From Devosia sp. YIM 151766 (GTDB taxonomy: Bacteria; Pseudomonadota; Alphaproteobacteria; Rhizobiales; Devosiaceae), in assembly GCF_030285925.1 (NCBI RefSeq), contig NZ_CP127251.1:2232001-2296000 (forward strand): a stretch of DNA of 64,000 nucleotides, read 5' to 3'. Numbering within the stretch: position 1 is the stretch's first letter; each line of letters begins with the position of its first letter. Under the pieces are notes generated by a model. That model did not search any database and was not told the DNA's origin. It saw nothing but the letters and a program-made list of their open reading frames with translations. The position numbers were made by a program, and so were the translations under genes. This document shows positions 59,434 to 64,000 of the stretch, in pieces.

Positions 59434-60165
59434 TCAGATACGGTTTTTGAAGCGCCAGCTGTCGTTGCCGGTTTCGACGATATCGCAGTGATGGGTGAGC
59501 CGGTCGAGCAGCGCCGTGGTCATCTTGGCGTCGCCGAAGACGGACGGCCATTCCCCGAAGGTGAGGTTGGTGGTGACGATGACCGAGGTCTGCTCGTAGA
59601 GGCGGCTGATCAGGTGGAACAGCAACTGGCCTCCTGACTGGGCGAAGGGCAGATAGCCCAGTTCATCGAGCACGACGACGTCCTTGCGGCCCATATAGTC
59701 GGCCAGGCGCCCCTGCCGACCGGCGCGGGTCTCTGCCTCGAGCCGGTTGACCAGATCGACGACGTTGAAGAAGCGGCCTCGCGCGCCGTTGCGGATGCAG
59801 GCCCGGGCAATGGCGATCGCCAGATGGGTCTTGCCAGTTCCGGTACCACCGACCAGCACCAGGTTACGCTGCATGGCCAGGAAGTTGCCGGCGGCCAGAT
59901 CGCGCACCAGGGTCTCGTTGATGCCAGTGCCTTCGAAGGTGAAGTCGTCGATGTCCTTGGCCAGGGGCAGCTTGGCGATGGTCATCTGGTACTTGATCGA
60001 GCGGGCCTGCTTCTCGGCGATCTCGGAGGTGAGCAGGTCCGAGACGATGCGAGCGGGCTGATGCTCGCGTTTGATCGCCGTGGCGATGATCTCGTCATAG
60101 GCGCTCTTCATGCCATAGAGCTTGAGCGTGTTCATGGTGGTCAGGATCTCGGAGCGTTCCATCAT
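59434..60165 (-). CDS. istB: IS21-family ATP-binding protein IstB
   Basis: A 243-residue AAA+ ATPase. Walker A is [11 protein letters not shown] near residue 105 and Walker [14 protein letters not shown] near 165; the N-terminal helical region [20 protein letters not shown] is standard. It assists the transposase in target choice. Its start overlaps the istA stop by four bases (ATGA), the usual IS21 arrangement. The reading frame is intact. Confidence 0.95.
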
Positions 60166-61664
60166 ATTGCCCTCCTCAGGCTGTCGTAGCGGGAACAGTC
60201 GGCCATGGGCTCGACGCGGAGCCGGAGGGCCTGTGGGGTATTGAGGATGGTGACCGGGCTGCGGGGTTCGCGCTGCCGGGCCAGGATGTTGAGCACGATA
60301 TCGGCGGAGCAGACCCCTTCACGCAGCGCCTCGGCACAGGCCGCCTCGACCGCCGGCAAGCCATCGCTGAGCACGGCGGTCAGGATGGTGACCATCTGCC
60401 GGCCCCCATCGGTTGCCGAGCCCAACCGGCGCCGGATCTTCTCGATGCTGGCCGGCAGCACCCAGTCCTTGAAGGGCGCGCCATTGCGCCAGGCGCCGGG
60501 CTTGCGCGCCAGCACCGGCACGTAATGCCAGGGGTCATAGACGGTCTGGTCGCGACCGAAGATGCGGGGATGTTCACCCACTGGCCTGCCGTCCTGACGC
60601 AGCTCGATCCGATCGGCATAGGCCCGGATCTCGACCGGTCGCCCCACCGCACTGGCCATCACCGAGTACTTGTTGTTATCGAACCGAACCAGGCAGGTCT
60701 TGGAGACCGAGGCCGTCACCGCATGGAAGCCGTCGAACCGGCCGGCATAAGGCACCAGACTGCCGCGCTCTGCCTCGAAGGCTTCCCAGATGGTCTGGTC
60801 GCGGAACTCGGGATGGCGATGCGCCCGGGCATAGGCAATGGTCTTGTCCAGCAGCAGGGCATTGAGCTCGTCATAGCTGCTCACGCGCAGGCGGGGCGTG
60901 AAGAAGCGCTCCCGCACCAGCCCGACCTGGTTCTCGACCTGGCCCTTCTCCCAACCTGAGGCGGGTGTGCAGGCCACAGGGTCGATCAGATAATGCCCGC
61001 ACATCTGCAGGAACCGGCGATTGTAGACTCGATCCTTGCCCACCAGGATCGTATCGACCGCCGTCTTCATGTTGTCGTAGATGCCGCGCGTGCAGGTGCC
61101 CTTGAAGAAGGCGAAGGCCCGATCATGAGCGTCGAACACCATCTCCTGGGTCTCGCGTGGATAGGCCCGCACGAACAGCATCCGGCTATGGCAGAGCCGG
61201 ACATGGGCGACCTTGACCGTCACCGTGGTGCCGTTGATCAGCACCACGTCGTGGCTCCAGTCGAACTGGTAGGCCTCGCCCGGCGCAAAGCTCAGCGGCA
61301 CGAAGGCGGATGCAACCGTAGCGGAGCGATCCTGATCCCAGTTCCGGGCATAGCGACGAACTGCATCGTAGCTGCCCGAATAGCCCAGTCCCGTGAGTTC
61401 CTCGAACACCCGGATCAGCGTCAGCCGCTCACGCGCAGCCTTCCCTTCATTGGCCAGCAATAGCTTATCCAGATCCCCCTGCCACGGACCGATCCGGGGC
61501 AGCGGCTGCTTCTCACGCTCATAGGAAAAGCTCGTCTCACCCGACCGGATGATCTTGCGCACCGTGTTGCGCGCAACATGCAACTCCCGCTCAATCTGCT
61601 TGATGGACTTGCCCTGCACAAAATATGCCCGACGAACCCGTGCAATCGTATCCACGCACTTCAT
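60162..61664 (-). CDS. istA: IS21-family transposase IstA
   Basis: A 500-residue DDE transposase. The N-terminal HTH is [20 protein letters not shown]. Likely catalytic residues are Asp in [10 protein letters not shown] (about 135), Asp in [11 protein letters not shown] (about 197) and Glu in [10 protein letters not shown] (about 240). The reading frame is intact, so the element may still be active. Confidence 0.95.
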
Positions 61665-61759: not shown

Positions 61760-62164
61760 TCAAATTTGCATGCCGAAACACAGGTTACCAGCATCATCGA
61801 CTGTCAGCTTTATGCCGATAATTGAAATCGGGGTATCGTGAAAGAATCGCGAAAATGGAACGATCAGTTCCTTCCATTCCGTTGAAACGATTATCGCACG
61901 TATTTCATCGTCACGTGCCCCTAGATGGCTTTTGACGGCCTCAACGTATTTATGTATCTCGTGTATTGCTTGGCGCGCGGCTGCATCGCTCCTTTTGAGC
62001 TCGATCAACACCCAGCGGCCACGGCGATCTTTGGCTAGTATATCGATAAAGCTTCTAGTACCCAGAGAGCTAGGTAAATACTGTTCTATTTTGATTAATT
62101 CGATGCCGTCTTCTATTATTTCTAACTGCGTCGAGAGCAAGTCTCTTAAACGGGATTCTAACAT
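61760..62164 (-). pseudogene. PD-(D/E)XK nuclease, C-terminus truncated by the IS
   Basis: The frame gives 134 residues. The nuclease core is visible: RSFIDILAKDRRGRWVLIEL followed by KR, which supplies the D-x(n)-E-x-K active-site pattern, then AIHEIHKYVEAVKSHLGARD. It resembles the DUF91/NucS-type nuclease domain. The last eight residues (LCFGMQI region) are encoded by the insertion element end, so the natural C-terminus is missing. Base composition is AT-richer than the rest of the window. It may originally have been a defence or repair nuclease. Confidence 0.65.
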
Positions 62165-62304
62165 TGATTTTCCAGAGTAATTTTACAATAAGGCAAATTA
62201 CTATTCATGCTATATTATATACAATAGAAACTGACGCGCGGTGTCTAGCGCAGCTTATTATGAGGGTTTTGACCTTATCATATAAGACGATTATGCAGCT
62301 GCGG

Positions 62305-62335
62305 ATGCGGTGATTAAAGTGGTCATTCACCGCAT
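62305..62335. promoter_or_regulatory. Inverted repeat upstream of the Fic gene
   Basis: ATGCGGTGA at 62305-62313 and TCACCGCAT at 62327-62335 are perfect inverted arms 13 bases apart. The half-site AATCACCGCA returns at 62381-62390 within the second palindrome, giving three related half-sites before the gene. Confidence 0.6.
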
Positions 62336-62375
62336 TTTGAGCGGCGAATAAGGTTGCTTTATGCGACGAATATCT

Positions 62376-62410
62376 GGCATAATCACCGCAAGGAGTGCGG
62401 AGATTATGCC
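62376..62410. promoter_or_regulatory. 35-base palindrome enclosing the Fic ribosome-binding site and start codon
   Basis: GGCATAATC (62376-62384) pairs with GATTATGCC (62402-62410), then CCGCA (62386-62390) with TGCGG (62396-62400), with one A-A mismatch. The five-base loop is AGGAG, the ribosome-binding site, and the start codon at 62406 lies in the right arm. It can act as a DNA operator or as an RNA hairpin hiding the start. Confidence 0.7.
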
Positions 62411-63527
62411 CATAAACTATAACCACCAGCTGTCGGATTGGCCTAATTTCACATGGGATGACAAAGCGCTGTCAGACCAGCTTGCTGCTGTCCGCCATCG
62501 GCAAGGGCGCTTAATTGGACGCATGGAGGCACTGGGCTTCGAACTGCGCGGCGAGGCCGTTCTCCAAACGCTTACGCAGGACGTTATTAAGTCTAGCGAG
62601 ATCGAAGGTGAAAGCCTCGACGCAGACCAAGTGCGATCATCCATTGCTCGGCGCCTTGGTATGGATATAGGCGGCCTCGTTCCAGCAGATCGTGACGTCG
62701 AGGGCGTTGTAGAAATGATGCTGGATGCCACGCAGAACTATACGAAACCACTAACCCAAGAACGCTTGTTCGATTGGCATGCCGCCCTGTTTCCAACAGG
62801 ACGCTCCGGCATGAGCCGCATAGTGGTTGGCGCGTGGCGCGATGATCGAGACGGCCCCATGCAGGTTGTGTCTGGCCCTATGGGGCGAGAGCGCATTCAT
62901 TATGAAGCGCCAGAGGCAGCGCGCTTGGATGCTGAGATGTCTGCGTTTCATGACTGGATTGAGGGTTATGCAAAACTGGATTTGGTGCTCAAGTCGGCCA
63001 TCGCGCATCTTTGGTTTGTGACCATTCACCCGTTCGAAGATGGTAACGGGCGTATTGCGCGGGCGATAGCAGATTTGGTCTTGGCGCGTTCCGAAGGCAG
63101 CGCACAGAGGTTTTACTCAATGTCCGCGCAGATACGCATCGAGCGCAACGACTATTACGATATTCTGGAGAGCACGCAAAAAGACGGCTTGGATATCACT
63201 CCCTGGCTGTCATGGTTCTTGGGCTGTTTGGATCGTGCCTTTGACCATGCTGAAGAAACGCTAGCCAACGTCCTGCGTAAGGCGCGGTTTTGGGAGTATC
63301 ACGCCAACGATGCATTCAACGAACGCCAGCGTGACATGCTGATGCGCCTGCTAAATGGCTTTTTTGGAAACCTCACATCGGGTAAATGGGCGAAGATTCA
63401 GAGATGCTCATCCGATACGGCGCTGCGCGATATCAACGATCTGCTTGATCGCGGTGTGTTGGCAAAGGTGCCGGGCGGTGGCCGCAGTACAAGCTATGCT
63501 CTTGTTCCTCCCAACATGGAGCAATAG
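62406..63527 (+). CDS. Class II Fic family protein with N-terminal DUF4172-type domain
   Basis: A 373-residue protein. The Fic core motif HPFEDGNGRIAR (about 208-219) is complete, including the catalytic His. The inhibitory helix motif SSEIEGE (about 69-75) lies N-terminal to it, which defines class II. A winged-helix-like C-terminus (SGKWAKIQRCSSDTALRDIN, LLDRGVLAKVPGGGRSTSYA) suggests DNA binding. Fic enzymes usually attach AMP to protein hydroxyls. The ATG at 62406 is placed by AGGAG; an ATG at 62361 is less likely. The neighbouring coupling-protein gene suggests a mobile element cargo. Confidence 0.88.
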   Translation: MPINYNHQLSDWPNFTWDDKALSDQLAAVRHRQGRLIGRMEALGFELRGEAVLQTLTQDVIKSSEIEGESLDADQVRSSIARRLGMDIGGLVPADRDVEGVVEMMLDATQNYTKPLTQERLFDWHAALFPTGRSGMSRIVVGAWRDDRDGPMQVVSGPMGRERIHYEAPEAARLDAEMSAFHDWIEGYAKLDLVLKSAIAHLWFVTIHPFEDGNGRIARAIADLVLARSEGSAQRFYSMSAQIRIERNDYYDILESTQKDGLDITPWLSWFLGCLDRAFDHAEETLANVLRKARFWEYHANDAFNERQRDMLMRLLNGFFGNLTSGKWAKIQRCSSDTALRDINDLLDRGVLAKVPGGGRSTSYALVPPNMEQ

Positions 63528-63619: not shown

Positions 63620-64000
63620 CTACGACAAGATATTGCCTAGCAGCCAAATCACCGATGCCACAAAGCCCAGATAGATGGCGGTGCGTAGAAATGCCCTAGT
63701 TTTGGAGAACCGCACGGATTGCGCCGTGGCGCTTACGCTTGCATCAATGGTTTTGGGCATTGCTCGATTGGCTTTTCGTCCTTGGACTTTCTGTTGGGCG
63801 CAAGCTTCGTCCATAATCGCTCTGATGAGCGATATGGGTTCGGCGTGGTCACGATGTGGATCGAACAGACCTTTGAACTTTGGGTCCGTGAAGTACATCG
63901 TGCGTTTGAGGGCCAGGGGCTGCAGGCCTGATGTTATAGCCAGCATGGCAGGGTTTTCGCGGTTTCCGAACAAGCGCCCGACTTCATCGGGGTTGAGCAA
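63620..64000 (-). CDS. C-terminal part of a VirD4/TraG-like coupling protein (partial)
   Basis: At least 126 residues; the gene continues past the window edge. MLNPDEVGRLFGNRENPAML and MYFTDPKFKGLFDPHRDH match the last conserved region of type IV secretion coupling proteins, where a xLxPDEVxxL motif is followed by YxxDPxFxxxxDP. The C-terminus ends in a hydrophobic helix (AFLRTAIYLGFVASVIWLLG), which is not usual for this family. It indicates a conjugative or mobilisable element extending to the right. The 92-base gap to the Fic gene shows nothing notable. Confidence 0.65.
   Translation of the reverse strand: MLNPDEVGRLFGNRENPAMLAITSGLQPLALKRTMYFTDPKFKGLFDPHRDHAEPISLIRAIMDEACAQQKVQGRKANRAMPKTIDASVSATAQSVRFSKTRAFLRTAIYLGFVASVIWLLGNILS

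What the first reader, a model, noticed from the sequence alone, without database searches (positions are those of the whole stretch)
62305..62410. Fic gene preceded by nested palindromes that hide its own start site
A 35-base hairpin has AGGAG exactly as its loop and the ATG in its stem, and a second palindrome 40 bases upstream shares the half-site AATCACCGC. The encoded Fic protein has a winged-helix-like C-terminus, so it could bind these sites and repress itself, or the RNA hairpin could control translation. Either would be an uncommon control of a potentially toxic AMPylator.
Basis: partly seen in the sequence, partly recalled or inferred. Interest (0 to 1): 0.7.

Follow-up and report, generated by a model that had tools for sequence, protein, structure and literature searches.

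The report
Fic gene's conserved self-binding operator
The palindromes in front of this Fic (AMP-transferring) enzyme gene are part of a six-part DNA operator kept with the gene across several bacterial phyla, and one base of it changes together with a residue in the enzyme's own DNA-reading helix, so the enzyme very probably switches off its own gene.

Summary
The hairpin (62376-62410) and the upstream palindrome (62305-62335) belong to one array of six 11-bp half-sites, TGCGGNGAWTA, in two tandem three-site modules offset 56 bp (62306-62406). A -35-like box lies between the modules, the -10-like box overlaps the hairpin's left arm, and the start ATG overlaps the last half-site. Of 149 distinct leaders (the window's included), 123 carry the full array (score at least 44 of 54; shuffles at most 31), Planctomycetes among them. 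In the window's own genome the palindromes occur only here. In a tree-corrected scan of 960 residue tests, Leu340, in the predicted recognition helix of the Fic winged helix, best predicts half-site base 6 (p 7e-11). So the best reading is DNA autorepression by Fic itself. The RNA-hairpin reading is not supported: transcription should start in the loop, and the arms show no clear RNA-type covariation at base 6. Autorepression by an HTH-bearing Fic is known (CccR); CbFic2, the closest solved relative, was tested with random DNA. A conserved six-site operator with a specificity residue appears new. Fic-free copies of the module in viral contigs are unexplained.

The parts
62324..62334 (-). half-site H2 TGCGGTGAATG (module 1; right arm of the second palindrome)
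62340..62350 (+). half-site H3 AGCGGCGAATA (module 1, just upstream of the -35-like box)
62354..62359 (+). -35-like box TTGCTT; TTG[ACT] stands between H3 and H4 in 121 of 123 arrays
   Evidence: the general scan did not list it in the window (8 of 12 consensus matches, my count)
62362..62372 (+). half-site H4 TGCGACGAATA, in the -35/-10 spacer (module 2)
62378..62383 (+). -10-like box CATAAT, 18 nt after the -35-like box, overlapping H5
   Evidence: column counts; start point about 62390 inferred
62390..62395 (+). AAGGAG ribosome-binding sequence, the hairpin loop plus one base
   Evidence: read from the sequence
62396..62406 (+). half-site H6 TGCGGAGATTA (right arm of the hairpin), whose last base is the A of the start ATG
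62406..63527 (+). fic gene, 373 aa, class II: DUF4172 + inhibitory SSEIEG (S63 to G68) + Fic motif HPFEDGNGR (208-216) + C-terminal winged helix (about 306-366)
63411..63449 (+). codons 336-348 of the predicted recognition helix of the winged helix; residue 340 (Leu) is the specificity-linked position and 336 (Ser) a weaker one

Best explanation
The palindromes are a composite DNA operator, built of six 11-bp half-sites in two rigid three-site modules, that overlaps the sigma-70-type promoter and start codon of a class II Fic adenylyltransferase gene. The Fic protein's own C-terminal winged helix reads the half-sites, so that Fic occupies the -35/-10 region and represses its own transcription, keeping a potentially toxic AMPylator low. 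Shown here by computation: the array, its geometry, its conservation with fic and its absence elsewhere in this genome, and the link of one recognition-helix residue with one half-site base. Inferred: physical binding, repression rather than activation, the transcription start in the hairpin loop, and which half-sites one dimer holds.
For: The six-site array scores at least 44 of 54 in 123 of 149 distinct leaders (the window's own included) against 27.3 (sd 1.3, maximum 31) in 60 mononucleotide shuffles; H5-H6 is 16 bp in 123 of 123, H2-H3 16 in 122, H4-H5 18 in 118, H1-H2 18 in 111. A TTG[ACT] box stands between H3 and H4 in 121 of 123, 17 or 18 nt from a YATAAT-like box in 107 of 121. Own genome: both palindrome patterns with up to 3 mismatches occur only here. 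Searches by DNA alone: in 398 genomes of the window's phylum each pattern hit 5 genomes, with fic directly downstream in 4 of 5 both times, the window's own genome being one of the first four (coordinates). Covariation: residue 340 Leu goes with mixed base 6, other residues mostly with A; discovery 49 against 26 loci, p 4e-10; independent 44 against 24, p 5e-6; tree-corrected scan of 135 loci and 960 tests puts residue 340 first, t 7.1, p 6.6e-11, with 14 Leu/non-Leu changes on the tree; with 14 other responses (other bases of the half-site and two control traits) no residue exceeds t 4.7. Residue 340 lies in the predicted recognition helix. Precedent: CccR.
Against: No binding, repression or start-site data exist for this gene. 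A third small set shows the same direction but no significance (15 Leu against 5 non-Leu loci, p 0.28). Asn and Gln at residue 340 go with only partly A-rich sites, and Leu is permissive rather than exclusive. An odd number of half-sites per module fits no simple dimer model. Of 149 leaders, 26 fall below the cut-off and 3 (L066, L108, L109) are no better than shuffles. The same module occurs without fic in viral contigs and in genome G471, so another protein may read it too.
Confidence: 0.84

Rival explanations
1. An RNA hairpin in the mRNA sequesters the AGGAG and ATG and controls translation (thermometer- or riboswitch-like).
For: The 35-nt hairpin would be very stable if transcribed (-20.5 kcal/mol, z -7.5). 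At half-site position 9 the arms H5 and H6 agree in 0.715 of the 123 arrays, more than the other four pairs counted.
Against: The conserved promoter puts the start near 62390, so the left arm is not transcribed; RNA from 62390 to 62470 folds no better than shuffles (z +0.67). Base-6 agreement of H5-H6 is 0.485 against 0.432 (sd 0.045) for random pairs of the same locus. H2-H3, with the same spacing but upstream of the promoter, also agrees well at position 9 (0.65). Four of the six sites lie outside the hairpin. No Rfam family reaches its gathering score.
Confidence: 0.04
2. The operator is read by another DNA-binding protein, not by Fic, and merely travels with fic.
For: Modules without fic occur in 28 of 29 viral records tested and in genome G471.
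Against: The best predictor of operator base 6 in the whole Fic protein is a recognition-helix residue. The palindromes are unique to fic in this genome and follow fic across phyla, which is hard to explain for a host regulator.
Confidence: 0.08
3. The half-sites are recombinase core sites (11-bp arms, 7-bp spacer) that mobilise the fic gene.
For: H1-N7-H2 and H4-N7-H5 have the form of a tyrosine-recombinase core (recalled), and palindromes with varied 7-bp spacers are common in viral contigs.
Against: No gene family lies within 4 kb of more than 9 of 98 distinct fic-free sites. The sites sit rigidly on a promoter and start codon and covary with Fic.
Confidence: 0.03

Closest known systems
CccR of Yersinia pseudotuberculosis (PMC9755527; passages, first of two parts of section 10)
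   Same: Class II Fic with C-terminal HTH that represses its own promoter through inverted repeats near the -35 and -10 boxes (EMSA, footprint, lacZ fusion in that paper).
   Different: CccR's operator is one pair AGATAATCAT-N26-ATGATAATCT, not found in the window with up to 3 mismatches. Here there are six half-sites of another sequence, conserved across phyla. CccR is a T6SS effector; nothing seen here suggests secretion, which was not tested.
CbFic2 (PDB 8CIL; PMC10628234, outline and passages)
   Same: Same domain order (DUF4172-Fic-wHTH), closest solved relative: E 9e-96 by sequence, TM 0.87 and 0.89 and 42% identity for chain A by structure. Binds DNA through the HTH, and DNA changes its activity.
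   Different: That paper used random DNA and leaves a specific target open. The upstream DNA of its gene was not fetched here (control-listed germ).
SoFic / EcSofic single-gene phage defence (PMC12249575, outline and passages)
   Same: Class II Fic with inhibitory helix and C-terminal domain; PADLOC SoFic profile matches at 1.1e-45.
   Different: Far below NCBIfam's SoFic cut-off (49 of 550 bits); no widely conserved small gene downstream; no operator is described in the passages read.
Type II toxin-antitoxin autoregulation, such as Phd-Doc (recalled)
   Same: A toxin locus that regulates itself through palindromes over its promoter.
   Different: There the antitoxin carries the DNA-binding domain; here one polypeptide would be enzyme, inhibitor and repressor.

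Membership tests
Class II Fic adenylyltransferase | Fic motif HPFx[D/E]GN[G/K]R | tested here: met
   HPFEDGNGR at 208-216; H208 and D212-R216 invariant, P209 and F210 nearly so in 38 aligned sequences; PF02661 1.4e-16
Class II Fic adenylyltransferase | N-terminal inhibitory motif [S/T]xxxE[G/N] | tested here: met
   S63-SEI-E67-G68 by sequence; I66, E67 and G68 invariant in 38 aligned sequences
Class II Fic adenylyltransferase | AMP transfer to a target | not testable with these tools
   needs a biochemical assay
DUF4172-Fic-wHTH family of CbFic2 | DUF4172, Fic and C-terminal wHTH in one chain | tested here: met
   PF13776 1.3e-35; model helices 306-316, 325-332, 336-348 and two strands; 8CIL match over the chain
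SoFic anti-phage defence | match to the defence profile | tested here: inconclusive
   PADLOC 1.1e-45, but NCBIfam SoFic equivalog cut-off not met, 49.2 of 550 bits
SoFic anti-phage defence | AS1-like small antitoxin gene downstream (described for E. coli H397) | tested here: not met
   a 30-75 aa frame starts near the fic stop in 20 of 77 loci; by eye only close relatives share one (L026/L031; L045/L063/L069/L080). AS1 itself was not compared
SoFic anti-phage defence | protection against phage | not testable with these tools
   needs plaque assays
Autorepressing Fic (CccR type) | inverted repeats at the -35/-10 of its own gene | tested here: met
   in the window the match to sigma-70 consensus is weak
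Autorepressing Fic (CccR type) | the CccR operator sequence AGATAATCAT-N26-ATGATAATCT | tested here: not met
   0 matches in the window with up to 3 mismatches
Autorepressing Fic (CccR type) | the Fic HTH binds its own promoter and represses it | tested here: inconclusive
   covariation of recognition-helix residue 340 with base 6 supports binding; binding itself not measured
RNA hairpin translational control | arms covary as base pairs | tested here: inconclusive
   H5-H6 base-6 agreement not significantly above random pairs; position-9 agreement is the highest of five pairs
RNA hairpin translational control | both arms in the transcript | tested here: inconclusive
   the conserved promoter predicts a start in the loop; no 5' end was mapped

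The most novel reading that the evidence does not exclude
These phage-borne copies could be decoys or switches aimed at host Fic proteins of a possible phage-defence family: a replicating phage would fill the cell with operator DNA and so titrate the Fic repressor or change its activity, either disarming it or serving as the signal that arms it.
Probability: 0.07. Interest if true: 0.88.

Novelty: new variant of a known kind. Interest (0 to 1): 0.62.

Why it matters
Class II Fic proteins with a winged helix are widespread and some are reported to defend against phages, but what their DNA-binding domain reads was given, in the three papers looked into, only for CccR. Here a precise operator, its geometry on the promoter and one specificity residue are named for the family to which CbFic2 belongs, so target DNA, autorepression and DNA-dependent switching of AMPylation become directly testable with defined DNA instead of random DNA. 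If true, one chain would be enzyme, its own inhibitor and its own repressor in several phyla. The searches that found no printed description of this operator are (listings and starts of abstracts seen); they cover only open-licence PMC papers.

Tried and rejected
RNA-level control was tested and not supported. A general promoter and terminator scan of 62160-62460 found nothing above its thresholds; the promoter rests on the family comparison. The idea that residue 336 His goes with base 5 T (2 of 2 such loci, L058 and L065, against 1 of 141 others with at least three sites) could not be tested further: no such operator was found in viral contigs or in 398 genomes. An AS1-like downstream antitoxin was sought and not seen. 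Fic-free modules: no shared neighbour gene, mostly not terminators (12 of 65 with a T run), 26 of 76 sites of the N5 pattern without adjacent fic lie in one recurring phage coding stretch and were set aside, and isolate phages gave no match covering 80% of a query. A third covariation set was not significant. Other palindromes of this kind in the own genome were sought and not found; single half-sites were not sought genome-wide.

Rows dropped: of 232 loci then held, 209 gave a plus-strand fic match and 150 distinct leaders; one shorter than 120 nt was left out of the 149. Loci with fewer than three sites were left out: L066 in the discovery set; L101, L108, L109, L161 and L222 in the independent set. 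23 loci lying in reverse orientation were first missed; they and nine further loci were examined, where 20 of the 32 entered the count (two were duplicates, one had a short leader, the rest scored below 38; two of those counted, L324 and L325, have one clear module only). The tree scan used 135 loci with array score at least 38, few gaps and distinct proteins. Shuffles keep base composition only, and close relatives remain.

Full report
What is there. Read with an 11-bp half-site TGCGGNGAWTA, the region 62306-62406 holds six copies: H1(+) 62306, H2(-) 62324, H3(+) 62340, H4(+) 62362, H5(-) 62380, H6(+) 62396. Each of H4-H6 lies 56 bp after its partner in H1-H3, so there are two tandem modules of the form plus-18-minus-16-plus. 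Of the 9 places in the 64-kb window that match with at most one mismatch, 6 are here.

The gene. The start is ATG 62406, giving 373 aa. It is a class II Fic protein: DUF4172 (1.3e-35) and Fic (1.4e-16; both, scanned with the longer frame from 62361), inhibitory SSEIEG and HPFEDGNGR, largely invariant among 38 aligned sequences. AlphaFold2 gives mean pLDDT 92.0 and a C-terminal winged helix with helices 306-316, 325-332, 336-348 and strands 352-355 and 363-366. The best solved match is CbFic2 (8CIL chain A), TM 0.87 and 0.89, 42% identity, E 9e-96 by sequence. PADLOC's SoFic profile matches at 1.1e-45 but NCBIfam's SoFic cut-off is far from met.

Conservation. The leaders of 80 homologues found by protein (best 80 kept of 583) show the same array at first sight. 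I then took 232 loci, of which 209 gave a plus-strand fic match and 150 distinct leaders, the window's own among them; 149 were long enough for placement. With positions 5 and 6 left out of the score, 123 of 149 place all six sites at 44 or more of 54; 60 shuffled leaders reach 27.3 on average and 31 at most. Three of the 149 (L066, L108, L109) are no better than shuffles, two of them among the most distant homologues (35-37% identity). The spacing is rigid within modules (H1-H2 18 in 111, H2-H3 16 in 122, H4-H5 18 in 118, H5-H6 16 in all 123) and loose between them (H3-H4 18 to 23). The sources above the cut-off include Alphaproteobacteria, the planctomycete Singulisphaera acidiphila (complete genome, L071), and metagenome bins labelled Acidobacteria (L028) and Nitrospina (L018); a bin labelled Omnitrophota (L076) scores 40.4 (titles, scores). 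A Hymenobacter plasmid (Bacteroidota) has one clear module directly at its fic. Bin labels may be wrong.

Promoter. Between H3 and H4, 121 of 123 arrays have TTG[ACT]; with a -10 hexamer starting two bases before H5 (consensus YATAAT), the spacer is 17 nt in 83 and 18 nt in 24 of the 121. In the window these are TTGCTT (62354) and CATAAT (62378). H4 fills the spacer, H5 overlaps the -10 and H6 reaches the start codon: ATG at H6+10 in 54 arrays and at H6+8 in 20 of 123. The general consensus scan lists no promoter here; the match is 8 of 12 by my count. A start about seven bases after the -10 (general knowledge) falls near 62390, inside the hairpin loop.

RNA or DNA. If so, the hairpin's left arm is not in the mRNA; RNA from 62390 to 62470 folds no better than shuffles, although the whole 35-mer would be very stable. 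Among the 103 arrays with variable base 6, H5 and H6 agree in 0.485, random pairs of the same array in 0.432 (sd 0.045); 13.7% of resamples reach the observed value. Against this, position 9 of H5 and H6 agrees in 0.715, the highest of the five pairs counted, but H2-H3, which has the same spacing upstream of the promoter, reaches 0.65; I read this as a property of the 16-bp geometry.

Who reads it. The half-sites vary between loci mainly at base 6. From the first 81 loci I formed the idea that Leu at alignment column 355 (residue 340 of the 373-aa protein) goes with mixed base 6 and other residues with A. Discovery set: 49 Leu against 26 other, p 4.2e-10. Independent loci: 44 against 24, medians of the A fraction 0.33 and 0.71, p 5e-6, with Asn (n=7, mean 0.59), Gln (n=5, 0.40) and Val (n=2, 0.42) weaker than Tyr (n=7, 0.86), Ser (n=2, 1.0) and Ile (n=1, 1.0). 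A third small set (15 against 5) is not significant, p 0.28. To correct for relatedness I built a tree from residues outside the winged helix and ran phylogenetic regressions for the residue columns in 135 loci: of 960 tests column 355 is first, t 7.1, p 6.6e-11; next come columns 340 and 341 (t 4.8 and 4.4), 133 and 351. With 14 other responses, namely other variable bases of the half-site and two control traits, the best residue anywhere reaches t 4.7, so only column 355 stands clear of background. Residue 340 lies inside the predicted recognition helix 336-348. This is the strongest evidence that Fic itself reads the operator.

Uniqueness and searches by DNA alone. In the 3.29-Mb genome of the window both palindrome patterns with up to 3 mismatches occur only at this fic, reversed controls none. 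Searching 398 genomes of the window's phylum (not named by the tool) by DNA alone, the N5 pattern hit 5 genomes, 4 with fic directly downstream, the window's own included; the N7 pattern hit 5 genomes, again 4 at fic by coordinates. The exception both times is G471. In plasmids a module consensus hit 24 records: 12 lie at a fic gene (four fetched, with fic confirmed; the other eight by coordinates), two have no fic within the 3-4 kb fetched on each side (L323, L327), and ten were not checked. A DNA search from the G471 stretch in 80 genomes of its family gave six matches confined to the array, all fetched: five at fic and one without fic within about 2 kb.

Mechanism. Best supported: Fic binds the array, blocks RNA polymerase and so limits its own synthesis, as CccR does with a different operator (PMC9755527: EMSA, footprint, lacZ and ITC, read). 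For CbFic2 random DNA was used and a specific target is left open (PMC10628234, passages). Not known: which half-sites a dimer holds, why modules have three, and whether operator DNA also changes the enzyme's activity.

Unexplained. The N5 palindrome occurs in 82 stretches of viral contigs (80 listed), the reversed control in none. In one search, 9 sites in 8 of these 82 stretches are at fic; 76 sites (75 viral, and L317 of G471) are not, but one of them, L278, is the first module of a fic that lies just beyond the piece. 26 of the 76 sit in a recurring phage coding stretch, and 36 of the other 50 (L317 and L278 among them) have the third half-site at the module's spacing. Of 29 viral records searched whole, 28 encode no such fic, though records may be fragments; G471 has only a weak 73-residue match, E 1e-5. 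The two arms share base 6 in 0.51 of 65 distinct fic-free sites, against 0.57 for H1-H2 of fic operators, so they look like protein sites rather than hairpins, and 12 of 65 have a T run. No gene family lies within 4 kb of more than 9 of 98 distinct sites. I cannot say what they do.

Verdict. A real, conserved operator; autorepression very likely; the RNA reading unlikely. Kind known (CccR), variant new.

Noticed in passing
viral loci L233-L314 and L359-L440; L317 (genome G471); L354 (G699); L323 and L327 (plasmids): Copies of the Fic half-site palindrome or three-site module occur without adjacent fic in many viral contigs, two plasmids and a few bacterial genomes; reversed controls give 0 and 1 hits.
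   Followed up: partly
L317 1450-1545 and L329 (genomes G471 and G664): Two related genomes keep a five-half-site array between genes that look like fliR and flgL (names by recalled resemblance) while the spacers have diverged.
   Followed up: partly
62361-62405: An upstream in-frame ATG opens a 388-aa frame whose first 15 codons are operator DNA; operator conservation makes tblastn matches run through it, so automatic annotation may choose too early a start.
   Followed up: yes
61760-62164 (-): Divergent 134-aa frame resembling the NucS C-terminal or PD-(D/E)XK nuclease domain (2e-12), with weak PADLOC candidate-defence matches; it ends beside the IS21 element and may be cut short by it.
   Followed up: partly
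59434-61664 (-): IS21-type istA/istB pair beside the fic region.
   Followed up: no
63620-64000 (-): Frame with a weak match to type IV secretion DNA-transfer protein (0.007, below cut-off), cut by the window end.
   Followed up: no
L235-L311, for example L238 1730-3682: A phage gene of about 650 codons carries a recurring coding stretch that matches the palindrome pattern; set aside as coding.
   Followed up: no
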